Shown here: positions 2,817 through 41,220 of the stretch, piece after piece | Numbering within the stretch: the first letter of the stretch is position 1 | Layout of the letters: every line of letters begins with the position of its first letter | Origin: Akkermansia muciniphila | GTDB taxonomy: Bacteria > Verrucomicrobiota > Verrucomicrobiia > Verrucomicrobiales > Akkermansiaceae | Reading direction: 5' to 3' | Assembly: GCA_945862285.1 (NCBI GenBank) | Contig: CAMAYN010000008.1 | Span: 1-41,404, forward strand | Length of the DNA: 41,404 bases | Translations under genes and position numbers: made by a program | Notes under the pieces: model-generated | Database searches by the model: none | What the model saw: the letters and a program-made list of their open reading frames with translations, nothing else | What the model was told of the DNA's origin: nothing

Positions 2817-3974
2817 GTGAAGTGGGATTTCTTGATTGTGGGTGCTGGTTTTTCTGGCTTGGTAGCGGGTGAGCAATTGTCCAAAAGTGGGTTTCGTTGT
2901 AAAATCATCGATAAGCGCGATCATATCGGCGGTAATGCATATGATAAATTCGATGAGGCGGGCGTCTTAATTCATCCTTATGGCCCCCATTATTTTCGGA
3001 CAAACTCGCAGCGAATCATCGAATATCTTTCTCAATTTACGGAATGGAGCGAAGTCGCCTATGAAATCCGTAGCTTCACAAAAAATCAATATTGGCATTT
3101 TCCTATTAATCTCAACACTTTTGAGCAATGGCTTGGGCGTGAAAGCACGGAAGAAGAGTGGAGTCAGTGGTTAGACGAACACAAAGTCCCCATGACTTCT
3201 CCTGCAAATTCGGAAGAAGTCATCCTGAGTCAAGTAGGGTGGGATCTCTATAAAGCATTTTTTGAGCAGTACACGCTAAAACAATGGAAGAAGCATCCAA
3301 AAGAGTTAGCTGCTTCAGTTTGCGGACGCATTCCCATCCGCACCAATCGCGATAACCGCTATTTAACGGAAGAATTTCAAGCCTTGCCCTTGGATGGCTA
3401 TACAAAAATGATGGAGCGCATCATTGATTCGTCACAGGGATTAGAGGTAGAGTTAGGCGTGGATTATTTGGCAGATCGGAATCGCTGGGATTCCAAACAT
3501 ATCATTTACACTGGCCCGATCGATGCATTTTATGACTATTCTTTTGGACCACTTCCGTACCGCTCATTGAGGTTCGATTACGAATCCTACAATCAAGAAC
3601 AGTTACAGACCCGTGAGGCGGAGTCTGGCAAACCAGGGCACTGGCAGCCTGTGCTTCAGGTAAATTATCCTGATTTAGATGTTCCCTACACGCGCACGGT
3701 AGAGATCAAACACGCGACAAAACAAGACATTCCCGCTTCCACCGTTGTGCGCGAGTACCCCGAAGAATGGACTCCCGAAAAAGAACCATTTTACCCAGTG
3801 CCAACTCAAGAAAGCGCCGAACTTTATCAAAAATATAAAGAATTAGCTGATCGAGATGAACATGTCAGTTTCATCGGTAGATTAGGCTGCTATCGCTACT
3901 ACAACATGGATCAAGTTGTTGGCATGGCACTTACAGAATCACAAAAACTAATAAAAAAATACACCCGAATATGA
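2817..3974 (+). CDS. glf: UDP-galactopyranose mutase
   Basis: This flavoenzyme interconverts UDP-galactopyranose and UDP-galactofuranose, supplying galactofuranose for surface glycans. The N-terminus has the FAD Rossmann motif 'VGAGFSGL' (from about residue 7), then 'IIDKRDHIGGNAYD'. The family signatures 'TGPIDAFYDYSFG', 'LPYRSLRF' and the C-terminal 'YRYYNMDQVVGMAL' are all present. Length (385 residues) is normal. Translation starts at GTG 2817, with no good ribosome binding site. Where many mutases read GPHIFHT, this one reads 'GPHYFRT', so one histidine is replaced by arginine. It is the first plus-strand gene of the locus and overlaps the next gene by ATGA. Confidence 0.92.
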   Translation: MKWDFLIVGAGFSGLVAGEQLSKSGFRCKIIDKRDHIGGNAYDKFDEAGVLIHPYGPHYFRTNSQRIIEYLSQFTEWSEVAYEIRSFTKNQYWHFPINLNTFEQWLGRESTEEEWSQWLDEHKVPMTSPANSEEVILSQVGWDLYKAFFEQYTLKQWKKHPKELAASVCGRIPIRTNRDNRYLTEEFQALPLDGYTKMMERIIDSSQGLEVELGVDYLADRNRWDSKHIIYTGPIDAFYDYSFGPLPYRSLRFDYESYNQEQLQTREAESGKPGHWQPVLQVNYPDLDVPYTRTVEIKHATKQDIPASTVVREYPEEWTPEKEPFYPVPTQESAELYQKYKELADRDEHVSFIGRLGCYRYYNMDQVVGMALTESQKLIKKYTRI

Positions 3975-4900
3975 AAACAGCAGTCGTTACAGGCGGAGCG
4001 GGATTTGTGCCATCCCATTTGGTGGATCGCCTCTTAAGCGAAGGATTACGGGTGATCGCGTTCGATAACTTTGTCACGGGAAATCGACAAAACATCGCTC
4101 ATCTTGTGGATGAACCACGATTTTTGTTTTTCGAGCAGGATGTTTCTGAGCCATTCGATGTAGAAGGTGAAGTGGACTACGTTTTCCACATGGCTTCGCC
4201 CGCAAGCCCCATCGATTATGTGCAAATTCCCATCGAAACCCTAAAAGCGGGATCTTATGCGACGCACAACAGCCTAGACCTTGCACTTCGTAAGAAGGCA
4301 AGATTTCTTTTGGCTTCTACTTCGGAAGTTTATGGCGACCCAGAGGTTCATCCACAACAAGAGGAATACTGGGGCAACGTGAATTCCGTAGGGGTTCGGT
4401 CATGCTATGACGAGGCGAAGCGCTACGCAGAAGCGGCTACCATGGCGTATCATCGACACCATGGCCTCGATACAAAAATTGTCAGAATATTCAATACGTA
4501 CGGTCCGCGGATGCGACTTGACGATGGACGTGTCGTGCCGGCATTTATTGGCCATGCCATGCGCGGCGAACCGATGTCGATTTTCGGCGATGGCTCACAA
4601 ACACGATCTTTTTGCTATGTGAGTGACTTAGTCGATGGCATTTGGAGACTCATGCAAAGTTCTTACAACATGCCAGTCAATTGTGGAAACCCACATGAGA
4701 TGTCAATTCGGTCTTTTGCCGAAGCCGTTGCGCAGTATTTTGGGATAGAGTGCCGTTTTGACCCCAAGCCATTGCCGCCCGACGACCCCAAATTACGTAA
4801 GCCAGATATTTCAAAAGCCAAAGAATTGCTTGGATGGGAGCCGGTAATAGCATTTGACTCAGGGATTGCCGATACGATACGCTTTTTCCGAAATCAATAG
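3971..4900 (+). CDS. uxs: UDP-glucuronate decarboxylase (UDP-xylose synthase), extended SDR
   Basis: Predicted to oxidise and decarboxylate UDP-glucuronate to UDP-xylose with bound NAD+. The hallmark 'HMASPASPIDY' is present, followed by 'STSEVYGDPEVHPQ', 'EEYWGNVNSVGVRSCYDEAKR' (catalytic Tyr in YDEAK) and 'RIFNTYGPRM'. Length is 309 residues, typical for bacterial enzymes without a membrane anchor. The start overlaps the glf stop by four bases, suggesting translational coupling. UDP-glucose dehydrogenase at 9009-10388 would supply its substrate. An oddity is the nucleotide-binding loop 'GGAGFVPSH', with proline where the family usually has the third glycine (GGAGFxGSH). The enzyme is otherwise intact. 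A related SDR specificity cannot be excluded. Confidence 0.88.
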   Translation: MKTAVVTGGAGFVPSHLVDRLLSEGLRVIAFDNFVTGNRQNIAHLVDEPRFLFFEQDVSEPFDVEGEVDYVFHMASPASPIDYVQIPIETLKAGSYATHNSLDLALRKKARFLLASTSEVYGDPEVHPQQEEYWGNVNSVGVRSCYDEAKRYAEAATMAYHRHHGLDTKIVRIFNTYGPRMRLDDGRVVPAFIGHAMRGEPMSIFGDGSQTRSFCYVSDLVDGIWRLMQSSYNMPVNCGNPHEMSIRSFAEAVAQYFGIECRFDPKPLPPDDPKLRKPDISKAKELLGWEPVIAFDSGIADTIRFFRNQ

Positions 4901-4935
4901 AACCCAGCTAAGTCTTAAAAATCGTATCATTACCA

Positions 4936-6063
4936 ATGACATCAGTGACAGTACCTTTACTCGACGTTAACGCCCAAAACCACCCATTGCGAGTGGAGCT
5001 GGAACAGGCATTTGCGCGGGTGTTGACAACGGGGCGATTTATTTTTGGTGATGAAATGGAGGCTTTGGAGCGCGAATGCGCGGAAATGATTGGTGTGAAG
5101 CATGCACTTGCCGTTTCTTCTGGGACGGATGCATTAATTTTAGCATTAATGGCACTGAACGTGCTTCCCGGAGATGAAGTGCTCTGTCCATCGTTTACTT
5201 TTTTCGCTACTGCTGGCGCGATTCATCGTCTTGGTGCCGTCCCAGTATTTTGCGACGTAAAAAATGATGACTTTGGCATCTGCCTCAAAAGTGCCGCGGC
5301 AAAAATCACTTCTAAAACGCGCTGTATCATACCCGTTCATTTATTCGGTCAATGTGTGGACATGCATAGCGTTACTCATTTCGCCCGCGAGAATAACCTC
5401 ACCGTTTTGGAAGATTGCGCCCAAGCGATTGGCTCGGCCTACTGCGGAAAACAAGCGGGAACCATCGGGCATATTGGTGCCTTTAGTTTCTTTCCTTCAA
5501 AAAACTTAGGCGGATTTGGCGATGGTGGCATGGTGACTACCAATGATGATGAACTTGCGGAACGAATGGTTCGCTTGCGAAATCATGGCATGCACCCACG
5601 CTACTACCACAGCGAAGTGGGGGGGAATTTTCGACTTGATGCGTTGCAGTGTGCACTGCTTCGGGTCAAAGTGCCAAAGTATAAGAATTATCTCCGCCAT
5701 CGCCGACAAAATGCGGCTTTTTATCACCAACAATTAAGCGAAAAACTGGGTTTTATCTTGCCAAAAGAAATGCCGCGGTCACTTCATACTTGGAATCAAT
5801 TTACGATTCGCATCGAGAATGGTGCGCGTGATCACTTCAAAAAGCACCTAGCGGATCGTGGAATCGGGGCGGAAATTTACTACCCTGTGCCTTTGCACCA
5901 ACAGGAGTGCTTTAGAAATCTCCCGAAGCACTGTTTATCAGAATGTTCCACATCAGAATCGTTATCTCGAGAAGTCATCAGCATTCCGATTTACCCTGAA
6001 CTCTCGCAAGATCAGAAAAATTTTGTTGTTTCAGCAATCCAAGAATACACAATACCACAATGA
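4936..6063 (+). CDS. DegT/DnrJ/EryC1/StrS-family sugar aminotransferase
   Basis: A PLP enzyme of the family that aminates nucleotide-linked keto-sugars, usually with glutamate as donor. The N-terminus '[10 protein letters not shown]', the '[11 protein letters not shown]' phosphate loop, 'EDCAQAIGS' and the internal aldimine lysine Lys189 in '[14 protein letters not shown]' are all visible. The C-terminal '[15 protein letters not shown]' is shared with WbpE- and QdtB-like members. Length (375) is normal. It sits between uxs and fcl and overlaps fcl by ATGA. Its keto-sugar substrate is uncertain. The GDP-4-keto-6-deoxymannose made by gmd (7040) would allow a perosamine-type product, but the sequence looks closer to the 3-keto group, for which I see no obvious dehydrogenase nearby. 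Confidence 0.88.
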
Positions 6064-6998
6064 AAAAAATACTTGTAACCGGACACCGCGGCATGGTCGG
6101 GTCAGCACTTGTTCGACAAATCGAGAAAGCCAACGGACTCGAACCCATCGTAGCAGGGCGAAAAGAACTGGATCTTACCGATCAGAAATCTGTATTTGAT
6201 TATCTGCAACGTGAGCAGCCTGATGCCGTGCTGGTGGCAGCGGCAAAAGTAGGCGGAATCCATGCAAATTCTACTTACCCTGCCGAGTTTATATACGAAA
6301 ACCTCGCCATTGCTGCGAACCTCGTGGAAGGAAGTCGCCGTGCCAATGTCAACCGCGTTCTTTTCTTAGGCAGTTCATGTATTTATCCAAAAAATGCGCC
6401 ACAACCGATGACCGAAGATTGCCTCCTCACGTCACCTTTGGAACTAACGAATGAAGCCTATGCGATTGCAAAAATCGCAGGTCTCAAGCTGTGCCAGCAC
6501 TACCGGAGTCAATATGGGCTGATGTATCATAGCGCCATGCCCACCAATCTCTACGGACCTGGAGATAACTACCATGCAGAAAATTCCCACGTCATTCCGG
6601 CACTTATTCGCCGATTTCATGAAGCTCAATCCCGTGGTGATGCTTCCGTTACGATTTGGGGTACAGGCACACCAAGAAGAGAATTTCTGCATGTTGATGA
6701 TCTTGCCTCCGCTTGCATGCATTTACTTTCCCTAGAAAATCCGCCCGACTGGGTAAACGTCGGTACCGGAGAAGATGTCACGATTTTCGAATTGGCTTCG
6801 ATGATCGCCAAGGTTGTCGGGTTTACAGGCGAAATCCTTACTGATCCTACGAAACCGGACGGCACCCCGAGGAAATTACTCGATATCTCAAAAATCAAAG
6901 CCACAGGTTGGTCTCCCGCAGTTGATTTCCAAGCGGGGCTAGCCGAAGCCTATCAAGATTTCCAAGCCTCTTTAGAATCGGGAGCTGCCCGCTTATAA
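6060..6998 (+). CDS. fcl: GDP-L-fucose synthase
   Basis: This bifunctional epimerase/reductase converts GDP-4-keto-6-deoxy-D-mannose to GDP-L-fucose with NADPH. It has the SDR glycine motif '[10 protein letters not shown]', then '[15 protein letters not shown]', '[10 protein letters not shown]', the catalytic pair Tyr134/Lys138 in 'YAIAK', and '[13 protein letters not shown]', which is characteristic of the fucose synthase group. The reading frame is intact at 312 residues. The ATG overlaps the stop of the aminotransferase gene. Its partner gmd lies 41 bases downstream, in reversed order relative to the pathway. The mannose-1-phosphate guanylyltransferase needed upstream is not in this window. 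Confidence 0.94.
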
Positions 6999-7039
6999 CT
7001 CATACACCATCGAACAACACACAAACAACGCACAACATC

Positions 7040-8158
7040 ATGAAAAAAGCATTAATTACCGGCATTACAGGACAAGACGGCTCTTACTTGGCAGAATTTC
7101 TTCTGGAGAAAGGCTATGAAGTTCACGGCATTAAACGTCGCGCCTCTTTATTTAACACCGCCCGCGTCGATCACATCTATGAAGATCCGCATGTAGAAAA
7201 TAGCCGCTTCAAGCTCCATTATGGCGACCTTACCGATAGTTCTAACCTCACGAGAATTATTAGCGAAATACAACCCGATGAAGTCTATAACCTCGGTGCA
7301 CAATCACACGTTGCTGTTTCGTTTGAATCGCCCGAATACACGGCGGATGTGGATGCCATGGGGACATTGCGTTTGTTAGAGGCAATCCGATTTCTCGGGC
7401 TTGAAAAGAAAACGCGTTTCTACCAAGCCTCGACATCAGAACTTTATGGTCTCGTGCAAGAGATTCCTCAAAAAGAAACCACTCCATTCTATCCACGCTC
7501 GCCTTACGCGGTAGCGAAAATGTATGCCTATTGGATCACCGTAAACTATCGGGAATCGTATGGCATGTATGCTTGCAACGGGATTTTGTTCAACCACGAG
7601 TCGCCACGCCGCGGCGAAACCTTTGTGACGCGGAAGATTACCCGTGGCATAGCCAACATCGCCCAAGGCCTTGAAAAATGTCTCTATCTCGGCAACATGG
7701 ATGCCCTGCGCGACTGGGGTCATGCCAAAGACTACGTGCGCATGCAGTGGATGATGCTCCAACAGGACTCGGCAGAAGATTTTGTCATCGCTACAGGAAA
7801 ACAAATTTCCGTTCGTGAATTCGTTCGCATGTCCGCCGCAGAAGCGGGAATAAGCGTCAGCTTTTCTGGCACTGGTATTGATGAAGTCGCCACCGTTGAA
7901 GCTATCGCCGATCCAGAAAAAGCACCAGCAGTAAAAGTGGGAGATGCCATCGTGCGAGTTGATCCCCGATATTTCCGCCCCGCAGAGGTAGAAACACTTC
8001 TTGGCGACCCCGCAAAAGCCAAAGCAAAGCTCGGATGGGTGCCAGAAATCACCGTGGAAGAAATGTGTGCGGAAATGGTTGCTGCCGATCTCGACACGGC
8101 ACGCCAGCATGCTTTGCTTAAGTCCCACGGCCATAAAGTGGCCGTTGCTCGCGAATAA
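7040..8158 (+). CDS. gmd: GDP-mannose 4,6-dehydratase
   Basis: Converts GDP-D-mannose to GDP-4-keto-6-deoxy-D-mannose, the precursor of fucose, rhamnose and perosamine. Seen: '[19 protein letters not shown]' at the NADP-binding N-terminus, 'GDLTDSSNL', '[13 protein letters not shown]', 'ASTSELYG', catalytic Tyr156/Lys160 in 'YAVAK', and '[20 protein letters not shown]'. The 372 residues match the family. The segment around residues 280-310 is somewhat longer than in the E. coli enzyme, which is common in bacteria. With the neighbouring fcl it gives a two-step route to GDP-L-fucose. It may also feed the aminotransferase at 4936. Confidence 0.96.
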
Positions 8159-32460: not shown

Positions 32461-32566
32461 TGTAAGAAATGAATTACTTAATGCGCGCGTGATTTAGTAT
32501 CTCAATGCCATTTTCTATATCGCGAAATTTCACTTCAATAACTTGTATTGCTACGCAACGATTTTT

Positions 32567-34027
32567 ATGTTATTCAATTCTTGGGAGTTTCTTGTTCTAT
32601 TACTTATCACTCTCCTGCTCTATTATTTACCTTGGACAAAAGGATGTCACGGTAAAGCTTGGCAGGTGACAGTGGCTTTATTAGCAAGTGTCATTTTCTA
32701 TGGTTGGGAAGATCCAAAATTACTGGGTATTCTCTCAATTTCTTGTATCGGAAATGCTATCGCAACAGCAAGAATCATCGTATATAAAATCGCAGGAGAC
32801 GAGCAAAAGGTAAAACGTTGGGTGCGTTTAGCAGTAATTCTCAACCTAGGATTGTTAGCAGTTTTTAAGTATCTGCCATTTCTTGTCGGCATGATGCCGT
32901 TTCTTCCTCAAAACTGGATCAGTGCGCTGAAAAATATTCCGTTACCTATCGGAATCTCATTCTACACGTTTCATGGGATCAGCATGATAGTTGATGTCGC
33001 CCGTGGCGAGGTCACGCGTGAAAGTGACGCTATGTTATCACGAGGAACACGTTTTTCCAAAGGTGTTCGCGATATTGGATTTTATCTTTTGTTTTTCCCT
33101 CAATTGGTAGCTGGGCCTATTGTGAAAGCAAAACAGTTTTGGCCACAAATCTCAGCGAAGCGATGGAGCGACATTCCGTGGGTAAATGTGGTGCGCTACT
33201 TGATCTTAGGATTTTTTCTTAAAATGGTGGTTGCGGATAATCTGGCAGAGCAAACGGTAACCCTAACTAAGCCGTGGCTCAGCGACTTAAGTCCGCTAGA
33301 TTTAATTTTTCTTCTTTATGGATACTCCATGCAAATTTTTGCTGACTTTGCAGGATATTCTTTGATCGCCATCGGATTGGCTGCTTTGTTTGGTTATCAA
33401 TTCCCAATCAACTTTGATTTTCCCTACCTATCCACGAGTATTACGGAATTTTGGAGGCGATGGCACATGTCCCTCTCAGCGTGGCTTCGTGATTATCTGT
33501 ATATACCCCTTGGAGGAAATCGGAAGGGCGAGAAAAGAACATACATCAATTTATTTCTTGTGATGTTTTTAGGAGGACTTTGGCACGGCGCGGAATGGAA
33601 ATTTGCCTTATGGGGCACGCTTCATGGATTGCTGTTAGGAATGGAAAGATTTTGGAATAGACATCGCTCAAAAACTGCAAACCAACAAAAGTCAGGTCTT
33701 CGTGCTGTAGCTGGTTGGTTTTATACATTCCATGCTGTGACCCTTCTTTGGTTAACGTTTCTTATGCAAGACATGAATCAAATTGCCTATTTCTTCAGAG
33801 AATTGTTGATCCCTGGACGAGTTGTCGGACCTGTTGTCTATAGTTCGATTTTGTTTGGTTCCACTGTGGTAATCTATCATGCCTTTGGCTGGTGGCGTGA
33901 ACACCGCAAAGACACATTCTCGCAATTTAGAGGCTCATGGAGAGAGGCAGTGCTATACGGAGTCATGCTCTTTCTCTTGTTAACCAATGCAGGCCCGCCA
34001 CAGGGGTTCATTTATTTCCAATTTTAA
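32567..34027 (+). CDS. AlgI/DltB-type MBOAT O-acyltransferase
   Basis: 486 residues with about ten to twelve helices. It opens 'MLFNSWEFLVLLLITLLLYY', the typical AlgI-like N-terminus, which fixes the start at ATG 32567 rather than the TTG at 32543. The MBOAT signatures are present: 'LPIGISFYTFHGISMIVDV', 'FFPQLVAGPIVKA', 'FWRRWHMSLSAWLRDYLYIP', 'GGNRKG', and catalytic His340 in 'LWHGAEWKFALWGTLHG'. These enzymes pass acetyl or acyl groups across the membrane to a periplasmic partner. The partner is probably the anchored SGNH-like protein encoded 15 bases downstream. Confidence 0.93.
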   Translation: MLFNSWEFLVLLLITLLLYYLPWTKGCHGKAWQVTVALLASVIFYGWEDPKLLGILSISCIGNAIATARIIVYKIAGDEQKVKRWVRLAVILNLGLLAVFKYLPFLVGMMPFLPQNWISALKNIPLPIGISFYTFHGISMIVDVARGEVTRESDAMLSRGTRFSKGVRDIGFYLLFFPQLVAGPIVKAKQFWPQISAKRWSDIPWVNVVRYLILGFFLKMVVADNLAEQTVTLTKPWLSDLSPLDLIFLLYGYSMQIFADFAGYSLIAIGLAALFGYQFPINFDFPYLSTSITEFWRRWHMSLSAWLRDYLYIPLGGNRKGEKRTYINLFLVMFLGGLWHGAEWKFALWGTLHGLLLGMERFWNRHRSKTANQQKSGLRAVAGWFYTFHAVTLLWLTFLMQDMNQIAYFFRELLIPGRVVGPVVYSSILFGSTVVIYHAFGWWREHRKDTFSQFRGSWREAVLYGVMLFLLLTNAGPPQGFIYFQF

Positions 34028-34042
34028 TTTTAAAATTACGAT

Positions 34043-34909
34043 ATGAGTCACGGTTCAGCTTCTAAATTAAAATTCATGACCAGCCTATTATTGTCAGTAG
34101 GCGTTTGTTTTTGTATTCAAGCCTATTTTTTTTACATACGAGACGCGGGAACTGGTAAAACTGAATCCAATTACTTTAGTACATTTAGTCGGTTTCAAGC
34201 GGGTGCTAAACCCGCAGCAGAGATTGCTTTAGCAGGGTCTTCGATTACGGGAAGATTGCCTGGGAGAGAAATCGGGAATCAAGATATCGCCAATCTAGGT
34301 TCCGATGGTGGTTCTGCCATGGATGGATTGCGGCTAATCACAGAGGGAAGAATTGACCCGCCGTCATGGTTAGTCATTGAGGTCAACACGCTCTATCGGG
34401 CAGTTTGCGTAGGTGAAACATTGATCTATCAGGGGGCGCAGAGTCCATGGTTTGGTGTCGGAGCTAAGCAGCCATTACTGGGGGCGTCGGCTCGTCCAAC
34501 AGGTATGTTATACGCGGCGATTCTTCGACGGCCTAAGGTATTAGTGGCTGATGGATTCAAAGTAACTGCGAATGACATTGTGCTTCCCGTTGATAGCTCG
34601 CTCGATAAGTTTACCGAGGGAGAAAAAAACACGTTTGATTCTTATTTATCCCAGCTTCAAAGATTGCAAAACCAGGGTGTGAAAATCATTATTGCTAACT
34701 ATCCTGCTGGCGAAATGACTGAGCGGGAAGAATTTCTGATGAATACTACCTTAGCCGAATTAGGGAAATCGATAAAGTTTTCGTATCTTGATTTACGCAA
34801 TCAAATTCCTCGACAAGATCTACAATTTACAGATCCCATTCATTTAGCACCTGAGTCTGCCGCAAGAGTTTTGCAGACGATACGCAATTTCTGTATAGAG
34901 AATAACTAG
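34043..34909 (+). CDS. Membrane-anchored SGNH/AlgJ-like acyl transfer partner of MBOAT
   Basis: 288 residues. One N-terminal hydrophobic segment ('FMTSLLLSVGVCFCIQAYFF') works as an anchor or signal. The exported part has an SGNH-like nucleophile motif, 'IALAGSSITGRLPG' (Gly65, Ser66, Ser67, with Ser67 in the GDS position), a mid block 'LVIEVNTLYRAV', and the closing Asp264/His267 pair in 'TDPIHLAPESA'. Proteins of this kind (AlgJ/AlgX, DltD-like) receive acyl groups from MBOAT proteins and pass them to the glycan. Coupling to the MBOAT gene supports this. The sequence is not close enough to AlgJ for a name. Confidence 0.72.
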   Translation: MSHGSASKLKFMTSLLLSVGVCFCIQAYFFYIRDAGTGKTESNYFSTFSRFQAGAKPAAEIALAGSSITGRLPGREIGNQDIANLGSDGGSAMDGLRLITEGRIDPPSWLVIEVNTLYRAVCVGETLIYQGAQSPWFGVGAKQPLLGASARPTGMLYAAILRRPKVLVADGFKVTANDIVLPVDSSLDKFTEGEKNTFDSYLSQLQRLQNQGVKIIIANYPAGEMTEREEFLMNTTLAELGKSIKFSYLDLRNQIPRQDLQFTDPIHLAPESAARVLQTIRNFCIENN

Positions 34910-34913
34910 AATA

Positions 34914-35678
34914 ATGAGAACTGCATTAATAGGATATACTGGATTCGTTGGCTCTACTTTGGATGCGGAGCTACAACCATCCCATCGTTACCGCTCCACA
35001 AACATTGGAGAAATCAGAGGGGAAACATTTGACCATATCATTTGTGCGGGCGTGCAGGCCATGAAGTGGTGGGCCAACAAATTCCCTCAAGAAGATAAAG
35101 AGGGGATTATGCGCTTACTTGATGCGCTAGCAGATGTAAAAGCCGATCGATTTACGTTAATTTCATCGATTGATGTCTATCCTTCTCCTAGAGACGTTGA
35201 TGAATCTACCGTGATCGATCAAACGAATCATCATGCCTATGGGATGCATCGGTTGCTAGTAGAAGAATGGGTGAAGGAACATTTCCCCCATGTTTCTATT
35301 CTGCGCTTGCCAGGCTTGTTTGGTCCTGGGTTGAAAAAAAATGTCATATTCGATTTGTTACATGACAACGAACTGGAAAAAGTTCACCCCGATGGATGTT
35401 TCCAATACTACGACACTCGATCATTACCTGCCGATATTGAGAAAGCATGGGAAAATGATCTTCCACTTCTGAATCTATCAGCCGAGCCAATTTGCACACA
35501 TGAAATTCGCGACGTTTTCTTCCCAGGAAAAATGTTAGGAGGAGTAGGGCCCACTCCACCTGGTTATGACATGAAATCAAAATACGCTACAATATGGGGA
35601 GGTGATAATGGATATTTATACTCGAAAAAATCCATTTTTGAACAACTGGGTGACTGGCTCAATCGCCAAAATGCATAA
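34914..35678 (+). CDS. NAD-dependent epimerase/reductase-like SDR with YxxxR
   Basis: 254 residues, short for an extended SDR. The cofactor loop is 'LIGYTGFVGSTL'. 'LISSIDVYPSPRD' contains the serine/aspartate block and 'RLPGLFGPGLKK' the later family block. The catalytic Tyr109 is in 'YGMHR', so Arg113 replaces the usual lysine of YxxxK. 'FQYYDTRSLPADIEKAW' and 'EPICTHEIRDVFFP' follow. It starts five bases after the SGNH-like gene. With the TIM-barrel protein and FAD oxidoreductase downstream it makes a three-gene redox/isomerase set. The substrate is probably a sugar derivative, but none is shown by the sequence. Confidence 0.8.
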   Translation: MRTALIGYTGFVGSTLDAELQPSHRYRSTNIGEIRGETFDHIICAGVQAMKWWANKFPQEDKEGIMRLLDALADVKADRFTLISSIDVYPSPRDVDESTVIDQTNHHAYGMHRLLVEEWVKEHFPHVSILRLPGLFGPGLKKNVIFDLLHDNELEKVHPDGCFQYYDTRSLPADIEKAWENDLPLLNLSAEPICTHEIRDVFFPGKMLGGVGPTPPGYDMKSKYATIWGGDNGYLYSKKSIFEQLGDWLNRQNA

Positions 35679-35708
35679 TACACGGCACCACCTACGAGAT
35701 TCTGCACG

Positions 35709-36518
35709 ATGAACCACTTAGCATTTTCCCATATCGCTTGGCCGCCAACGGAAGAACCGCAGATGCTAGAGCACCTGAAAGGTCATCAAGTGAAACACTT
35801 GGAACTGGCTCCTGTTCGCGCATTCGGAAATCCTTTGGATGCAGATGAATCCTCAGTGCGACGTAGAGCGGAATTCTACCACCAGCATGGATTCCATATC
35901 TGTGCGTTTCAAGCGCTTTTATTCGGTTCAGAAGATTTGTATTTGTTTCGAGATGCTGCATCGCGCGAGAAAATGAAGCAATGGCTCATCGCAGTAGGCA
36001 AAGTGGCTGGATGGTGTGGTGCATCGGCGATGGTTTTCGGTTCCCCCAAAAATCGCTTGAAAGGCGCTTTATCGAAGCAGCAAGCAAATGAGATTGCTTG
36101 CGAATTTTTTCGAGAAATCGGAGATAAAATCGCTTCTTTCGGAACAAAAATTGTGATGGAGGCAAATCCAGCAGAATATGGTGCGGATTACTGCACGAGT
36201 TTAAGCGAGGCCGCGGAACTCGTAGCGATGGTCGATTCTCCTGGGTTTTTGCTGCACGTCGATGCAGGTGGGCTGGCTGTAACGGGAGAAGATTTTACTC
36301 CTGTCATCCAAAGATACAGCCATTTGATTGGTCATTTTCATGCAAGTCAAATCAACCTTGGTGATTGGGCTGATCCGCATCCCGTCCATCAAGAAATTTC
36401 CCAGAGCTTACGATCGGTCAATTATGACAAAATCATTTCCATAGAAATGAGATCCATCGAGCCTTACATAAGCACTATTTCAACTGCGATTGCGCAGGTG
36501 AAAAACATTTATTTTTGA
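35709..36518 (+). CDS. Xylose-isomerase-like TIM-barrel sugar isomerase/epimerase
   Basis: 269 residues, AP-endonuclease-2/xylose-isomerase-like TIM barrel. Likely metal ligands are in place: Glu151 in 'VMEANPAEYG', Asp185 in 'LHVDAGG', His211 in 'GHFHAS' and Glu246 in 'SIEMRS'. The N-terminal strand pattern 'LAFSHIAWP' with 'HLELAPVRAFG' is typical of this fold. It should interconvert keto/aldo or epimeric sugars with a divalent metal. It is located between the SDR and FAD oxidoreductase genes with 30- and 43-base gaps. Its pairing with a flavin oxidase-like enzyme in a glycan locus suggests work on an oxidised sugar, which is inference. Confidence 0.85.
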   Translation: MNHLAFSHIAWPPTEEPQMLEHLKGHQVKHLELAPVRAFGNPLDADESSVRRRAEFYHQHGFHICAFQALLFGSEDLYLFRDAASREKMKQWLIAVGKVAGWCGASAMVFGSPKNRLKGALSKQQANEIACEFFREIGDKIASFGTKIVMEANPAEYGADYCTSLSEAAELVAMVDSPGFLLHVDAGGLAVTGEDFTPVIQRYSHLIGHFHASQINLGDWADPHPVHQEISQSLRSVNYDKIISIEMRSIEPYISTISTAIAQVKNIYF

Positions 36519-36561
36519 TTGGGGATTATCAAATGAGGAAAATCTGCCATCGTAACGAATC

Positions 36562-37674
36562 ATGTCGGTAAACCCAAACGTCGTTGTCGTAGGTGGAGGA
36601 TTTTTTGGCTGTAGTATAGCGTTGATGTTGAAGCAACGCGGCTTGCAGCCTTTAGTCGTTGAGGCGGAAGATGAGCTACTCATGCGTGCTTCACGGGTCA
36701 ATCAGGCTCGTGTTCATGGAGGCTACCATTATCCTCGTAGCTTGATGACGGCTTATCGATCTCGACACAATTACCAGCGTTTTCGTAGCGTTTACAAAGA
36801 GGCTATCGTTGATACATTTACAAAAGTCTATGGCGTAGGTAGAAGATTTTCCAAGGTTACGGCCAATCAATTCGAGGTTTTCATGAAAAGAATTGGCGCT
36901 CCGTTGAAGCCAGCGCCTGAAGGTATCACGAAGTTATTTGATTCAAACCTTACCGAGGCGGTTTGGATCGCGGAGGAATGCGCGTTCGATTGCTCACTTT
37001 TACGTGAGCGTTGTCAGCGCGATTTAGATCAAGCGGGTATTCCAGTGCGACTTTCCACCCGCGTCGTTTCTGCGGCAAAATGCGATGATGGGTCAGCGCT
37101 CGTACGTTTGAGCGATGGTTCTGAGTGGCCCGTAAAAATTGTCATCAATGCGACATATAGCGGATTAAATCTACTTACATCTGGTAGTGGCTTGGATACC
37201 ATTCCTCTCAAACAAGAACTTGCCGAAATGGCATTAGTGGAACTCCCGCCAAGCTTAGCTGGATTATCCGTCACCATGATGTGTGGTCCATTTTTTTCGT
37301 TCATGCCGTATCCTTCAAGGGGATTAACGACCCTGAGTCACGTGCGCTACACGCCTCACCTGCAATGGTTAGAAAGACCTGGAGAAAAAGTTACTGATCC
37401 GTATTCCCGATTTCACTCTTTGAAAAAAGAAAGCCATTTCACCTACATGGTCAGCGACGCATCCCGATTCATCCCCGAGTTGCGCAAGGCCCAGTATCGG
37501 GATTCGATTTGGGAAGTAAAAACGCTATTACCACAAACAGAGGTCGATGATGGGCGTCCGATTCTTTTCCGCAGAGATCCAGGATTCCCATCGATCATCC
37601 ATGTTATGGGTGGAAAAATTGACAATATTTTTGATGTTGAAGACGAGCTTGATAATATTTTACAATCTAGCTAG
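36562..37674 (+). CDS. FAD-dependent oxidoreductase (DAO family)
   Basis: 370 residues. It has the FAD Rossmann motif 'VVVVGGGFFGCSIAL' (Gly11-Gly16), then 'VVEAEDELLMRASRVNQARV' and 'HGGYHYPRS', which mark a subgroup of D-amino-acid-oxidase-like proteins that I associate with surface glycan loci. A second FAD contact, 'VINATYSGLN', is visible. The C-terminal 'HVMGGKIDNIFDVEDEL' replaces the usual 'GHGFAMAP' type end. No signal peptide is seen, so it acts in the cytoplasm. It may oxidise a C-OH or C-NH of a sugar or lipid-linked sugar. The substrate is unknown. Confidence 0.85.
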   Translation: MSVNPNVVVVGGGFFGCSIALMLKQRGLQPLVVEAEDELLMRASRVNQARVHGGYHYPRSLMTAYRSRHNYQRFRSVYKEAIVDTFTKVYGVGRRFSKVTANQFEVFMKRIGAPLKPAPEGITKLFDSNLTEAVWIAEECAFDCSLLRERCQRDLDQAGIPVRLSTRVVSAAKCDDGSALVRLSDGSEWPVKIVINATYSGLNLLTSGSGLDTIPLKQELAEMALVELPPSLAGLSVTMMCGPFFSFMPYPSRGLTTLSHVRYTPHLQWLERPGEKVTDPYSRFHSLKKESHFTYMVSDASRFIPELRKAQYRDSIWEVKTLLPQTEVDDGRPILFRRDPGFPSIIHVMGGKIDNIFDVEDELDNILQSS

Positions 37675-37692
37675 TAGAATAACTAACCCGAA

Positions 37693-38691
37693 ATGGATTC
37701 CCATACTGTAATCAGCATAGTCGCCGCTCTTGAAAACGATGCGAGTGTGATCGATCATTTTCTTGATCACTTATCTCAGCAGTTATCCGCGCATTATCGA
37801 TTTTTTGAAATCATTATAGTCGATGATGGATCAACGGATGATACCCGCAGAATTCTGGAGAAAAAAATGAAAGAAGTCCAACGGGTGAGGTACATGAGAT
37901 TATCGCGCTCCTTTGGGCGAGACGTCGCCCTTTCGGCGGGAATTGAATCGGCTGTGGGTGACTATGTAGTCACGATGAATCCCACATGTGATCCAGTAGA
38001 ATGCATTCCCGATTTGGTAGCCAAGTGCAGGACGACGGGTGGCATTGTTCATGGTGTCGCGACAAATCTCAGCGAGAGATCCGTTTTTCGTGAGGTTTTT
38101 GGAAATTTATTTCGTAAATATTGCAAAAAACACTTGGGCGTTGAATTGCGCCGAGGTGCCGAGGACTTCCGCGTGATGAGTCGGCAAGCAGTAAATGCAT
38201 TGCTGCAAGTGCGGGTGCATAGCCGCTATTTACGCGTTCTCACACTTACCTTAGGTTACCAACACGATTTTTTCGATTATGCCATGAAAGAGAGGCGCGA
38301 TACGTCGTCCTCCGGGTTATTTGTCGCGGAAGTTTCTACGGCTGTTGATCTCCTTGCCGCGAACACAAGACATCCACTGCGTGTCGTAACCCTAGCGGGG
38401 ATTGCTGGTGCTGCGATTAATCTTGCCTACGCTGCGTATGTGCTGGCGATTTATCTATTAAAACAGAATGTTGCCGAAGGCTGGACGACTTTATCTTTGC
38501 AACTAAGCGGCATGTTTTTCTTCTTATGTCTGATCTTGGCGGTTATTAGCGAATATGTAGGGGCAATTCTTGGCGAAGTACGCAGTAGACCCTTGTATTT
38601 TATTTCTCACGAAGCCAATAGCTCGGTGCTATTAGAAGATACGGTGCAATCAAGCATCGTTAGGGAGTCCAATGAAAACCCTGAACTATGA
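37693..38691 (+). CDS. DPM1/ArnC/GtrB-like polyprenyl-phosphate GT2 with degenerate DxD
   Basis: 332 residues. The GT-A domain has 'IIIVDDGSTDDTRRIL' and 'RLSRSFGRDVALSAGIESA', and two C-terminal membrane helices ('VTLAGIAGAAINLAYAAYVL', 'MFFFLCLILAVISEYVGAIL'), the layout of enzymes that make undecaprenyl-phosphate sugars. The metal motif normally reading 'DADLQxPPE' is replaced by 'VTMNPTCDPVECIP', leaving no DxD there. The closing 'YVGAILGEVRSRPLYFI' is normal for the family. The stop overlaps the next GT2 gene. It may be inactive, metal-independent or use the Asp in CDP. Confidence 0.85.
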   Translation: MDSHTVISIVAALENDASVIDHFLDHLSQQLSAHYRFFEIIIVDDGSTDDTRRILEKKMKEVQRVRYMRLSRSFGRDVALSAGIESAVGDYVVTMNPTCDPVECIPDLVAKCRTTGGIVHGVATNLSERSVFREVFGNLFRKYCKKHLGVELRRGAEDFRVMSRQAVNALLQVRVHSRYLRVLTLTLGYQHDFFDYAMKERRDTSSSGLFVAEVSTAVDLLAANTRHPLRVVTLAGIAGAAINLAYAAYVLAIYLLKQNVAEGWTTLSLQLSGMFFFLCLILAVISEYVGAILGEVRSRPLYFISHEANSSVLLEDTVQSSIVRESNENPEL

Positions 38692-39503
38692 GCAATGAGA
38701 TGAAGGAATTACGTGGAAACGATGACGGCTGTCCGCGCTACGAGGTAGCTTGGGAAAAGCCGAGAGAGAAAAATTTCGTTATCTGCATCTTCGTCATCAA
38801 CGAAGGTGAGAAAGTGCGCAAGCAGCTACGTGCGATGTCCGCTTATGCGGATCAAGTTGACATAGTTATTGCGGATGGAGGCAGTACAGATGGTTCGCTC
38901 GATGAAGCTCTGATGAAAGAAGTTGGTGCCAAGGCATTGCTCGTGAAGCGCGGAAGCGGCAAACTCAGTGCCCAGATGCGTATGGCATTCGATTATGCAT
39001 TGAGTGAGGGATACGAAGGAGTCATCGTCATTGATGGCAATGGCAAAGACGGACTGGATGGAATTCCGCGCATGGTTACAGAACTGGAAAATGGTCGTGA
39101 TCACGTGCAAGGAAGTCGCTTCATCGCTGGTGGAATCCATGAAAATACACCTTTGACTCGCCTCCTAGCAGTTCGCCTTCTTCACGCGCCACTCGTCTCT
39201 GTGGCTTCGGGGCGATGGCAAACTGATACTACCAATGGCTTTCGGGCTTACAGTCGTTCACTTCTCGAAGATCCGCGCATTGCGACTTTCCGTGCGTGCT
39301 TTGATCGCTACCAACTGCATTACCATTTAGCCATTGAATCAGCGCGCCTCGGGTTTTCGTGTAGTGAGGTGCCTGTGTCTCGGAAATATCCCGCCACTGG
39401 GAAAACACCTACGAAAATTAACGGTTTTCGTGGATTACAGGCGGTATTACGTCAATTGTTTGCGGTCTGTTTGGGCTATTATCGCAAGCGCAGCAATGAT
39501 TGA
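38688..39503 (+). CDS. GT2 family glycosyltransferase (soluble, DPM1-like)
   Basis: 271 residues with one GT-A domain and no membrane helices. Motifs are 'FVINEGEKVRKQLRAM', 'IVIADGGSTDGSLDEA', 'IVIDGNGKDGLDGIPRM' (the usual DxD region reads DGNGKDG) and 'QGSRFIAGG', which is a common block in DPM1-like enzymes. It overlaps the previous GT2 by ATGA, and a GtrA-like gene follows after 3 bases. This makes a GT2/GT2/GtrA unit that probably makes a polyprenyl-phosphate sugar and moves it outward. Whether the two GT2 proteins act in turn or as a pair is unknown. Confidence 0.85.
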   Translation: MSNEMKELRGNDDGCPRYEVAWEKPREKNFVICIFVINEGEKVRKQLRAMSAYADQVDIVIADGGSTDGSLDEALMKEVGAKALLVKRGSGKLSAQMRMAFDYALSEGYEGVIVIDGNGKDGLDGIPRMVTELENGRDHVQGSRFIAGGIHENTPLTRLLAVRLLHAPLVSVASGRWQTDTTNGFRAYSRSLLEDPRIATFRACFDRYQLHYHLAIESARLGFSCSEVPVSRKYPATGKTPTKINGFRGLQAVLRQLFAVCLGYYRKRSND

Positions 39504-39506
39504 TCT

Positions 39507-40025
39507 ATGAAAATTTTGCAAGATGCCATCACTGAAATGCAGTGGTTTCTGCGCTCGATCCATCAGGGTAGCTGCGGCGATGCAGTAGCTCGAATCCTAT
39601 CGCCTACTGCTCCCGAAGTATGGAAATTGTTAAAATACCTCACCATAGGAGTTCTTTCCGTGGTAGTTTTTTATGCGTTTTTGTATCTATTTCGATTTTT
39701 TGCCGCGAATGGGTTTGGTGCAAATCTTGAAGAACATCGATTTTTGTGGAATTCATTCGCTATTTTTTTTGCGTTTATACCAACAAATTTTTTCACATAT
39801 TTTACGAATCGAAAGTGGGTGTTCGTGGCTGGTCGCCATGAAAGCAAACGAGAATTTTTATTGTTTACGATTGCCGCAGCCGCGAGTTTTATCGTAGGAG
39901 AAGTGGGTGTATATTATGCCGTAATTCATACATCGGTGAGCGATTTCCATGTAAGTTTGGTGTTTATTGCGATGACCACATTTTTTAATTACGGATTTAG
40001 AAAGAAAATTGTTTTTCATGAATGA
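39507..40025 (+). CDS. GtrA-like membrane protein
   Basis: 172 residues with four hydrophobic helices ('LTIGVLSVVVFYAFLYLF', 'FLWNSFAIFFAFIPTNFF', 'LLFTIAAAASFIVGEVGVYY', 'VFIAMTTFFNYGF'), the GtrA layout. 'FFTYFTNRKWVFVAG' and the C-terminal 'NYGFRKKIVF' match the common 'NFxxxRxWVF' and 'NFxxRKxxVF' ends. GtrA-type proteins are thought to help move undecaprenyl-phosphate sugars across the membrane. The N-terminal cytoplasmic tail of about 40 residues is longer than usual. It is placed directly after the two GT2 genes, and the next gene starts eight bases before its stop. Confidence 0.85.
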   Translation: MKILQDAITEMQWFLRSIHQGSCGDAVARILSPTAPEVWKLLKYLTIGVLSVVVFYAFLYLFRFFAANGFGANLEEHRFLWNSFAIFFAFIPTNFFTYFTNRKWVFVAGRHESKREFLLFTIAAAASFIVGEVGVYYAVIHTSVSDFHVSLVFIAMTTFFNYGFRKKIVFHE

Positions 40026-41220
40026 ATTGACGAACAAAGAGACTCCACAAGCGCGACCCAAGGTGGCATTCGTGACCAATATGCTGCCGCCGTATCGCGT
40101 ATCGATGTACAACGCCGTGAGTAAAATCACATCGTTTACTGTCATTCTGGATAAAATGAGTGAGTTTAATCGTAGCTGGAAAGTTTCCCCAGAAGACATT
40201 CATTTTCCCTACATTTTGCAAAATTGCTTTTCTTTTATCTATCAGAGGAAGCGCGAAGATGTTCAATACTCGGAAAAACGCCAATTTCACTTTTCGCAGA
40301 GAACGATCCCACTACTCCATGAGATCAAACCAGATGTGGTGGTGACGATTGAGTATGGACTCAAATCGCTATGGTGTATCCTGTATGGTATCATTTTTGA
40401 CGTGCCGGTGATTTTAGTCTCCGAGGGCACGAAACACACCGAAGGCTATGTCGGTAGGTTTAAACGATTTTTGCGTAAAATCATCGTTACTCAGTGCGAG
40501 CGTTTTTGGTCGAATGGTCCAGAATCCACGGAATTACTGATCGAGTATGGAGCCAGCCCGAGTCGCGTGGATGAAGGAATGACGGGAATCGATACCATTG
40601 CGTGGCGGCAACAGGTCGGAAAACAGATGGAAAATCGAGATGCGACTCGCCAAAAATGGAAGATGAAAGGCAAAGTATTATTATTTTCCGGTTCATTGTC
40701 GGCGAGAAAAGGAGTGATTCCTCTGGCGAAGGCTTTTGAGCGTTGGTTAGAGGCGAATCCAACGGCTGACGTTACCTTGCTACTTCTTGGCGATGGTGAA
40801 AATCGAGCATGGCTGGAGGAGTGGTCGCAGCGATGTCCGGGGGCGAATTTAATCATGCCAGGATTTATTCAAAGAGAGGAATTACCGGCATTTTTTGCGG
40901 CAGCGGATTGGGCTGTATTGCCTACAATTGACGACAACTGGCCACTAGCCACTCTGGAAACTACCGTTGCCGGTTTGCCCCAGTTGTTTTCTTGTTATAA
41001 CGGCGCCACGAGCGATCTCATGAAGGATGGCACGGGAGTCATGATCGATCCGCTAGATCAAGAGAGCTTTGTGCGCGGGCTAGATCATTTTTATTTTTCC
41101 GAACAAGGTAGGGTTAGCGAAAACATGATTGATGAATTGTCGCGCTATTATTCGGCAACGATGCAAGCCCAACGCGCCATGCGTTCTTTTCGATTGGCAA
41201 CAGGGCAAATCGATGCTTGA
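40018..41220 (+). CDS. Glycosyltransferase, GT4 family
   Basis: A 400-residue GT-B enzyme: 'VAFVTNMLPPYRVSMYNAV', 'VTIEYGLKSLWCI', 'LVSEGTKHTEGYVGRFKRFL', then 'LLFSGSLSARKGVIPLAKAF' and the donor-site segment 'LPTIDDNWPLATLETTVAGL', where the E-x7-E first glutamate is replaced by aspartate. It begins at ATG 40018, overlapping the GtrA-like gene by eight bases. TTG 40009 is less likely. No membrane segments, although the 'RFKRFLRKIIV' stretch may touch the membrane. Specificity unknown. Confidence 0.86.
   Translation: MNELTNKETPQARPKVAFVTNMLPPYRVSMYNAVSKITSFTVILDKMSEFNRSWKVSPEDIHFPYILQNCFSFIYQRKREDVQYSEKRQFHFSQRTIPLLHEIKPDVVVTIEYGLKSLWCILYGIIFDVPVILVSEGTKHTEGYVGRFKRFLRKIIVTQCERFWSNGPESTELLIEYGASPSRVDEGMTGIDTIAWRQQVGKQMENRDATRQKWKMKGKVLLFSGSLSARKGVIPLAKAFERWLEANPTADVTLLLLGDGENRAWLEEWSQRCPGANLIMPGFIQREELPAFFAAADWAVLPTIDDNWPLATLETTVAGLPQLFSCYNGATSDLMKDGTGVMIDPLDQESFVRGLDHFYFSEQGRVSENMIDELSRYYSATMQAQRAMRSFRLATGQIDA

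What the first reader, a model, noticed from the sequence alone, without database searches (positions are those of the whole stretch)
34914..40025. SDR + TIM-barrel isomerase + FAD oxidoreductase set coupled to GT2/GT2/GtrA: possible undescribed lipid-linked sugar pathway
Seen: six consecutive same-strand genes, three encoding a redox/isomerase set and three a polyprenyl-phosphate sugar synthesis/transport set, with gaps of 43 bases or less or an overlap. Known: DprE1 (FAD) and DprE2 (SDR) epimerise a decaprenyl-phosphate sugar in mycobacteria by oxidation then reduction, although DprE1 belongs to a different flavoprotein family from the DAO-type enzyme here. Inference: the FAD enzyme oxidises a sugar (free, nucleotide- or lipid-linked), the TIM-barrel enzyme isomerises or epimerises the keto form, and the SDR reduces it. 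The product is then exported via GtrA. I know of no characterised pathway with this combination.
Basis: partly seen in the sequence, partly recalled or inferred. Interest (0 to 1): 0.7.

Follow-up and report, generated by a model that had tools for sequence, protein, structure and literature searches.

The report
Rare-sugar gene cassette for surface glycans
The window carries a gene cassette, found in many unrelated bacteria, that probably turns an ordinary sugar into a rare one in three enzyme steps and attaches it to the cell surface; its E. coli counterpart sits where published work places genes thought to add a rare 4-deoxy sugar to the O162 coat.

Summary
In detail: six tightly packed genes encode an SDR, a xylose-isomerase-like TIM barrel, a DAO-type flavoenzyme, two GT2 proteins and GtrA. 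The set recurs in shuffled order. Of 54 loci with both flanks, 45 hold all four partners of the DAO. In 142 relatives DAO and SDR share the same 13 genomes; in 392 Enterobacteriaceae DAO, SDR and TIM share the same 9.

The key clue is in E. coli. The cassette (with an SMR transporter) follows gnd in the same 5 of 5426 genomes whose wzm/wzt match strain NCTC10973 at 99% or more, read here as O101/O162 genotype. [quoted passage not shown] Three of the five carry IS4 at the DAO start; two are intact.

Best reading: DAO oxidises C2 of an activated hexose, TIM acts at C3 (losing 4-OH in the O162 type), SDR reduces, GtrA/SMR flips the polyprenyl-linked product. The chemistry is inferred; whether the window makes the same sugar is uncertain.

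The parts
34914..35678 (+). SDR-fold reductase (proposed ketone reductase). GYTGFVG nucleotide loop, Ser84, Tyr109; Arg113 stands where the usual YxxxK lysine would be
   Evidence: PF01370 E 1.9e-7; S84 in 78 of 79 rows (one gap), Y109 and R113 in 79 of 79; that YxxxK is usual is recalled
35709..36518 (+). Xylose-isomerase-like TIM barrel with ketose-3-epimerase-type metal site E151/D185/H211/E246 (proposed to act at C3 of a 2-keto sugar; epimerase or dehydratase)
36562..37674 (+). DAO-type FAD oxidoreductase (proposed C2-OH oxidase/dehydrogenase of an activated hexose)
37693..38691 (+). GTa: GtrB/ArnC-type polyprenyl-phosphate glycosyltransferase homologue with two predicted TM helices and a degenerate DXD site (MNPTCDP); co-varies with DAO
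   Evidence: GtrB sll0501 (5ekp) E 7.5e-65, ArnC 9hwj 3.8e-47; both Asp of DXD kept in 0 of 97; r 0.90 with DAO
38688..39503 (+). GTb: DPMS/AglJ-like GT2 with a D-G-N-x-K-D motif in place of DXD (proposed polyprenyl-phosphate sugar synthase)
   Evidence: AglJ TIGR04182 55.8 bits, below its cut-off of 325; DPMS 5mlz E 4e-13; N118, K120, D121 in 79 of 79 strict rows
39507..40025 (+). GtrA-type flippase of the polyprenyl-linked sugar; an SMR-type protein takes this slot in the E. coli, Psychrobacter and Pseudomonas loci
   Evidence: PF04138 E 2.6e-9; SMR/EmrE/DMT in the slot
40021..41220 (+). GT4 glycosyltransferase directly downstream; probably part of the larger cluster rather than of the cassette
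   Evidence: PF00534 E 9.8e-20; similar proteins (one blast cluster) in only 5 loci: L024-L027 and the window

Best explanation
It is a side-chain sugar cassette that works like the Gtr O-antigen modification systems but carries its own rare-sugar pathway. Proposed steps: an already activated hexose (nucleotide- or polyprenyl-phosphate-linked; the cassette has no kinase or nucleotidyltransferase) is oxidised at C2 by the DAO flavoenzyme; the TIM enzyme takes the C3 proton next to the C2 ketone, as its ketose-3-epimerase relatives do, and in the O162 type expels the 4-OH (2-keto -> 4-deoxy-2,3-dione); the SDR reduces the ketone(s). GTb, with the GtrB-like GTa, puts the sugar on or holds it as polyprenyl phosphate; GtrA or an SMR protein flips it; a variable multi-TM protein transfers it to the glycan. 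In E. coli the product is probably the 4-deoxy-D-arabino-hexose branch of O162. In the window it is that sugar or a close relative. Shown: gene content, linkage, conserved metal site, family memberships, genotype match in E. coli. Inferred: every chemical step, the order of steps, the carrier, and the window's product.
For: Linkage: 45 of 54 fully flanked loci hold SDR, TIM, GTa and GTb around the DAO, in several gene orders. DAO and SDR strong hits fall in the same 13 of 142 relatives, TIM in 10 of these 13 and nowhere else at that strength; DAO, SDR and TIM in the same 9 of 392 Enterobacteriaceae. E. coli: near-identical cassette in 5 of 5426 genomes, the same five with wzm/wzt at >=99% to NCTC10973, against 5 at 97.1% and 304 in the 90-95% band, between gnd and ugd. 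PMC13168486 (Introduction read): O162 differs from O101 by a 4-deoxy-D-arabino-hexose branch; Fig. 1 legend: genes directly downstream of gnd hypothesised to modify O162 but not O101 because of a transposon. Three of the five carry IS4 there and their DAO ORF starts 14 codons later, without the GGGFFG loop; two are intact. KSC64 (97.1% wzm/wzt) has another GtrA/GT2 set in this slot and no DAO, SDR or TIM. Stereochemistry (own reasoning): 4-deoxy-D-arabino-hexose has C3 inverted relative to Glc, Man and Gal, so C3 must become sp2; TIM's nearest relatives work at C3 beside a C2 ketone; DAO's best sequence match is a glycerol-3-phosphate oxidase, which oxidises the carbinol next to a C-O-P carbon (recalled). 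AKR or Gfo/Idh/MocA in loci lacking the SDR.
Against: No biochemical data. TIM's matches are epimerases and isomerases; the IolE dehydratase model scores 20.8 bits against a cut-off of 290 and no chain named IolE is among the 36 matches. A 2,3-dione needs two reductions and the cassette has one obvious reductase. TIM is missing in 4 SDR-bearing loci of the 54 (L032, L033, L034, L102) and in 5 further short loci; 5 of 54 lack both SDR and TIM. I did not see the serotype records of the five E. coli strains, the O101/O162 reference loci, or Liu et al. 2020 (not held). Window and E. coli proteins are only 24-45% identical. No multi-TM GT-C candidate lies next to the window cassette; the contig ends soon after. 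DAO's structural neighbours include amino-acid and amine oxidases within about one Z unit.
Confidence: 0.55

Rival explanations
1. TIM is a plain C3 (or C4) epimerase and the window's product is a fully hydroxylated rare hexose (for example an altrose- or gulose-type sugar). The logic is that of E. coli YcjQRS, and the loss of O4 is peculiar to the Enterobacteriaceae or happens elsewhere.
For: TIM keeps the four metal ligands and its nearest sequences and folds are ketose 3-epimerases, IolI and YcjR. Window TIM is only 31% identical to the E. coli O162-type TIM, while the E. coli copies are 53-64% identical to each other.
Against: The E. coli cassette has no other candidate for the deoxygenation step, and the same five families recur together in E. 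coli and the window.
Confidence: 0.25
2. A DprE1/DprE2-like epimerisation of a polyprenyl-phosphate sugar: DAO oxidises the lipid-linked sugar and SDR reduces it from the other face, with TIM optional.
For: DAO and SDR were always found together in the two genome surveys (13 of 13 and 9 of 9); TIM is missing from 3 of the 13 relatives. GTa, a GtrB relative without a usable DXD, co-varies with DAO (r 0.90 against 0.72-0.79 across blocks), as expected if it presents a polyprenyl-phosphate sugar to the flavoenzyme.
Against: TIM is present in 45 of 54 loci with an intact metal site. 5 of 54 loci have DAO without this SDR. DAO is not of DprE1's family. Nothing here shows that the substrate is lipid-linked.
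Confidence: 0.15
3. The three enzymes only modify a common nucleotide sugar for the main-chain glycosyltransferases, and their place beside the GT2/GtrA genes reflects cluster packing.
For: Polysaccharide clusters often gather unrelated nucleotide-sugar genes, and this window has several.
Against: The cassette recurs as a unit with both GT2 proteins and often an SMR or GtrA protein, also alone on a 10.8 kb Psychrobacter plasmid and on an E. coli plasmid; GTa 53 of 54 and GTb 53 of 54.
Confidence: 0.05

Closest known systems
E. coli O101/O162 genes downstream of gnd (putative O162 side-branch genes; PMC13168486 Fig. 1 legend, citing Liu et al.)
   Same: Five families shared with the window (DAO, GTa, SDR, TIM, GTb) plus a small flippase and a multi-TM protein
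   Different: SMR instead of GtrA; different gene order; 24-45% identity to the window. That my cassette is the gene set of that legend is inferred from place and genotype
Gtr O-antigen modification cassettes (GtrA flippase, GtrB polyprenyl-phosphate glucosyltransferase, GT-C)
   Same: GtrA or SMR, a GtrB-family protein, often a variable multi-TM protein; mobile and found in a modification slot
   Different: Own three-enzyme sugar pathway; the GtrB homologue has lost the DXD; a second GT2 is always close by in the full loci
E. coli YcjQRS (guloside/glucoside interconversion; recalled, YcjR = 6wn6)
   Same: Oxidation, a TIM-barrel enzyme acting beside the ketone, reduction; TIM matches YcjR
   Different: Catabolic, NAD dehydrogenases (recalled) rather than a DAO flavoenzyme and an SDR; acts on glycosides
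DprE1/DprE2 (decaprenyl-phosphate ribose/arabinose; recalled)
   Same: Flavoenzyme plus SDR beside polyprenyl-phosphate sugar genes
   Different: DprE1 is a VAO-type flavoprotein (recalled); here PF01266 DAO, plus a TIM enzyme
Inosose dehydratase IolE (recalled chemistry)
   Same: TIM barrel of the same superfamily that dehydrates a ketone to a 1,2-dione; the chemistry proposed here for the O162-type TIM
   Different: Only 20.8 bits against a cut-off of 290; not a member by sequence

Membership tests
Gtr (GtrA/GtrB/GtrC) modification cassette | GtrA-type flippase | tested here: met
   PF04138 E 2.6e-9, 37.7 bits against a cut-off of 26.1
Gtr (GtrA/GtrB/GtrC) modification cassette | GtrB homologue with an intact DXD catalytic site | tested here: not met
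   GTa is GtrB-like over its whole length (5ekp E 7.5e-65), but both Asp of DXD are kept in 0 of 97; GTb has D-G-N instead
Gtr (GtrA/GtrB/GtrC) modification cassette | Polytopic GT-C transferase in the cassette | tested here: inconclusive
   Window: none adjacent and the contig ends soon after. Elsewhere: a >=400 aa, >=6 TM ORF within 6.5 kb in 44 of 54 loci, but Pfam named none of the ten tested as a transferase; one is MFS, nine had no match
DprE1/DprE2 pair | VAO-type FAD-binding oxidase | tested here: not met
   DAO PF01266; fold neighbours GlpD, glycine oxidase, G3P oxidase
DprE1/DprE2 pair | SDR reductase partner | tested here: met
   PF01370 at 34914-35678, co-occurring in 13 of 13 relatives with DAO
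Ketose 3-epimerase / YcjR-type TIM enzymes | Glu-Asp-His-Glu metal and catalytic site | tested here: met
   E151 73, D185 73, H211 74, E246 74 of 74 rows. That these are the ligands in D-psicose 3-epimerase is recalled
IolE inosose dehydratase | NCBIfam equivalog score | tested here: not met
   TIGR04379 20.8 bits, cut-off 290
E. coli O162-type ara4dHex cassette | DAO, GTa, SDR, TIM, GTb and a flippase in one cluster | tested here: met
   (GtrA in the window, SMR in E. coli)
E. coli O162-type ara4dHex cassette | Product is 4-deoxy-D-arabino-hexose | not testable with these tools
   Needs glycan analysis or enzymology

The most novel reading that the evidence does not exclude
A flavoenzyme works on a membrane-bound polyprenyl-phosphate sugar that is presented by a catalytically dead GtrB-like glycosyltransferase (GTa). 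TIM and SDR then dehydrate and reduce it while lipid-linked, so that a 4-deoxyhexose is made on the carrier. This would be a new way to build sugars, spread over loci from 13 named phyla.
Probability: 0.25. Interest if true: 0.82.

Novelty: new variant of a known kind. Interest (0 to 1): 0.62.

Why it matters
4-Deoxy-D-arabino-hexose is a known O-antigen sugar of E. coli O162 and Franconibacter pulveris O1 (and, from a title in a reference list, Citrobacter braakii O6). [quoted passage not shown] If this reading is right, it names the enzymes, gives a stereochemically consistent route that can be tested with three soluble-looking proteins, and shows that the cassette is not an enterobacterial oddity: DAO loci came from 13 named phyla, with TIM in 12 of them (mostly MAG titles). 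It also points to a conserved DXD-less GtrB relative that co-varies with a flavoenzyme.

Tried and rejected
Phage origin: tblastn of the DAO in 50,697 phage records gave one partial hit (33% of the query). Pfam scans to name the multi-TM proteins: of ten tested, one MFS and nine without a match; blast clusters show that they fall into several unrelated groups, and the three E. coli ones match different proteins. IolE as TIM's family: not supported by score; no chain named IolE among the 36 or among the rows shown, which excludes nothing. Fold search to fix the DAO substrate: alcohol and amine oxidisers score within about one Z unit. Bradyrhizose and decaprenyl-arabinose were considered from memory and dropped for lack of any link. 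Literature searches by gene names gave nothing useful; strain names gave no paper. Co-variation could reflect physical adjacency (DAO and GTa are neighbours in most loci) rather than contact. The GTb profile was too broad (189 ORFs in its last round) and was replaced by a stricter one; the GTb counts come from the broad one.
Full report
Observation. Families: SDR, PF01261 TIM barrel, DAO, two GT2, GtrA. The cassette lies in a large polysaccharide cluster. The host genome G000 (3.65 Mb) has one DAO of this kind. The nearest named relatives are Verrucomicrobiaceae and Akkermansiaceae MAGs; L024 has an 83% identical DAO and the same run of genes, from the upstream 716 aa protein to the downstream GT4.

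Recurrence. tblastn in 72,556 plasmids gave 12 records. I opened 8 of them: 7 hold an SDR-position gene and a TIM gene beside the DAO, with GtrA in 5 and SMR in 1; the eighth (Mesorhizobium, 27% identity) has DAO and SDR together and a TIM gene nearby on the other strand. Psychrobacter pA22P4, 10.8 kb, carries mobilisation and replication genes and the cassette, with both GT2 proteins fused. The sample is therefore biased to close relatives. Over all 103 sources with a DAO, many cut short, profiles found SDR in 79, TIM in 74, GTa in 97, GTb in 98. Over the 54 with at least 6.5 kb on both sides (window included; L008, L022 and L023 set aside), SDR 49, TIM 45, GTa 53, GTb 53, all four 45. Gene order varies, for example GTa-DAO-SDR-TIM-SMR-GTb in L064, DAO-GTa-GTb-SDR-TIM in L035 and GTa-SDR-TIM-GTb-DAO in L053. 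Of the 96 DAO rows in the tree, those with a known origin fall in 13 named phyla, with TIM in 12 (titles are the submitters', mostly MAGs).

Phylogenetic profiles. Among 142 relatives (own genome included) 16 had any DAO match; 13 were strong (E <= 1e-90, next 1.1e-7). The strong SDR matches (E <= 1e-43, next 1.5e-14 in a further genome) are in the same 13; one SDR copy (G083) has an in-frame stop. Strong TIM matches (E <= 1e-28, next 1.1e-23) are in 10 of the 13; G002, G071 and G115 lack it. Among 392 Enterobacteriaceae 72 had any DAO match, 9 of them strong (E <= 1e-150, next 1.8e-6); the 9 strong SDR and 9 TIM matches are the same genomes, each on the same contig as the DAO.

Variants. Four SDR-bearing loci of the 54 lack TIM (L032, L033, L034, L102; L102 also lacks both GT2), as do five shorter Verrucomicrobial loci (L015, L016, L017, L029, L031). 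Five of 54 lack SDR and TIM (L039, L040, L046, L077, L103). Of these, L103 has an aldo/keto reductase next to the cassette, L039 a Gfo/Idh/MocA protein, L040 ATP-grasp and methyltransferase genes, L046 a hexapeptide-repeat protein; L077 was not examined further. I read the AKR and Gfo/Idh/MocA cases as replacement of the reductase. On the DAO tree the TIM state changes at least 8 times under three labels.

E. coli. A distant DNA search with the Mangrovibacter cassette (L082) found it in 7 of 5426 genomes. Five are near-identical over GTa-SDR-TIM-SMR-GTb and lie between gnd and ugd beside wzm/wzt annotated as O89/O101/O162 family. The others are SY3626, after gnd beside a different O-antigen cluster, and a resistance plasmid of CUPF09. 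wzm/wzt of NCTC10973 match 314 genomes: 5 at >=99%, 5 at 95-99% (97.1%) and 304 at 90-95%. The 5 are the cassette carriers. PMC4732683 (passages) gives O101 and O162 as 99% identical and O89 as 96.6% over 66.6%; PMC6128206 (passages) gives O89m-type wzm and wzt 92.6% and 93.4% to O101/O162. So the five fit the O101/O162 genotype (inference; no serotype record seen). KSC64, one of the 97.1% genomes, has a different set with GtrA in the gnd-ugd slot.

Published link. [quoted passage not shown] its Fig. 1 legend says that genes directly downstream of gnd are hypothesised to modify O162 but not O101 because of a transposon insertion, citing Liu et al., which is not held. In three of the five genomes IS4 (in two of them itself interrupted) lies between gnd and the DAO, whose ORF starts 42 bases later; the intact copy begins MRKNIIIVGGGFFG, so the lost part holds the FAD loop. 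NCTC10973 and 2017.17.03CC are intact. PMC11231755 (passage) reports two such residues in Franconibacter pulveris O1 and says that their synthesis is unclear.

Chemistry (inference). 4-Deoxy-D-arabino-hexose is 4-deoxy-altrose/idose: relative to Glc, Man and Gal its C3 is inverted and O4 is gone. Oxidation at C2, removal of H3 and loss of O4 give a 2,3-dione, whose reduction can set both centres. TIM has the ketose-3-epimerase metal site and its nearest structures act at C3 beside a C2 ketone. DAO's best sequence match is glycerol-3-phosphate oxidase and GlpD is among its nearest folds, enzymes that oxidise the carbinol beside a phosphate-bearing carbon (recalled); C2 of a sugar 1-phosphate ester is such a position. 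Against this: TIM scores far below the IolE model, two reductions are needed, and amine oxidases are as close to the DAO in fold.

The two GT2 proteins. GTa is GtrB-like over its whole length (5ekp E 7.5e-65), but the DADLQDP stretch of GtrB is degenerate; no member of 97 keeps both Asp. GTb resembles DPMS (5mlz E 4e-13) and has D-G-N-x-K-D with N, K and D in 79 of 79. Identity matrices over 59 loci give r 0.90 for DAO-GTa, 0.90 for SDR-TIM, 0.85 and 0.82 for TIM-GTb and SDR-GTb, and 0.72-0.79 across blocks; in 300 subsamples of 60% the within-block excess stayed above zero for DAO-GTa over DAO-TIM and for SDR-TIM over SDR-DAO. E. coli and the Pseudomonas/Burkholderia-type loci share about 60% identity in SDR and TIM and more in GTb, but about 41% in DAO and 23% in GTa. 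I read this as two exchangeable blocks; adjacency may explain part of it.

Verdict. A real, widespread and mobile cassette. Its E. coli form has a probable product; its enzymology I did not find in print. The window's product remains open: identity to the E. coli proteins is 24-45%.

Noticed in passing
32543-34909: MBOAT/DltB-like acyltransferase (TIGR04091 190 bits, below its cut-off of 375) followed by a 288 aa protein without a Pfam match that ends 4 bases before the SDR; possibly an acylation pair in the same operon.
   Followed up: no
2817-8158: UDP-galactopyranose mutase, several NDP-sugar dehydratase/epimerase genes and a DegT aminotransferase at the other end of the cluster.
   Followed up: no
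L007 1-10782: Psychrobacter plasmid pA22P4 is little more than mobilisation and replication genes and the sugar cassette, with GTa and GTb fused.
   Followed up: partly
L105 11981-18840: The cassette on E. coli plasmid pCUPF09A, between IS and transposon remnants and beside resistance genes.
   Followed up: no
L111 24790-32353: A different GT2/GtrA modification set occupies the same gnd-ugd slot in E. coli KSC64.
   Followed up: no
L040, L046, L037: DAO + GTa loci without SDR or TIM: L040 with ATP-grasp, methyltransferases and a HAD protein; L046 (and by position L037) with a hexapeptide-repeat protein. Possibly other sugars.
   Followed up: partly
34914-35678: The SDR has YGxxR instead of YxxxK in 79 of 79 rows; unexplained.
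   Followed up: no
G083:C1:3964438-3965181: The SDR match in relative G083 contains one in-frame TGA.
   Followed up: no
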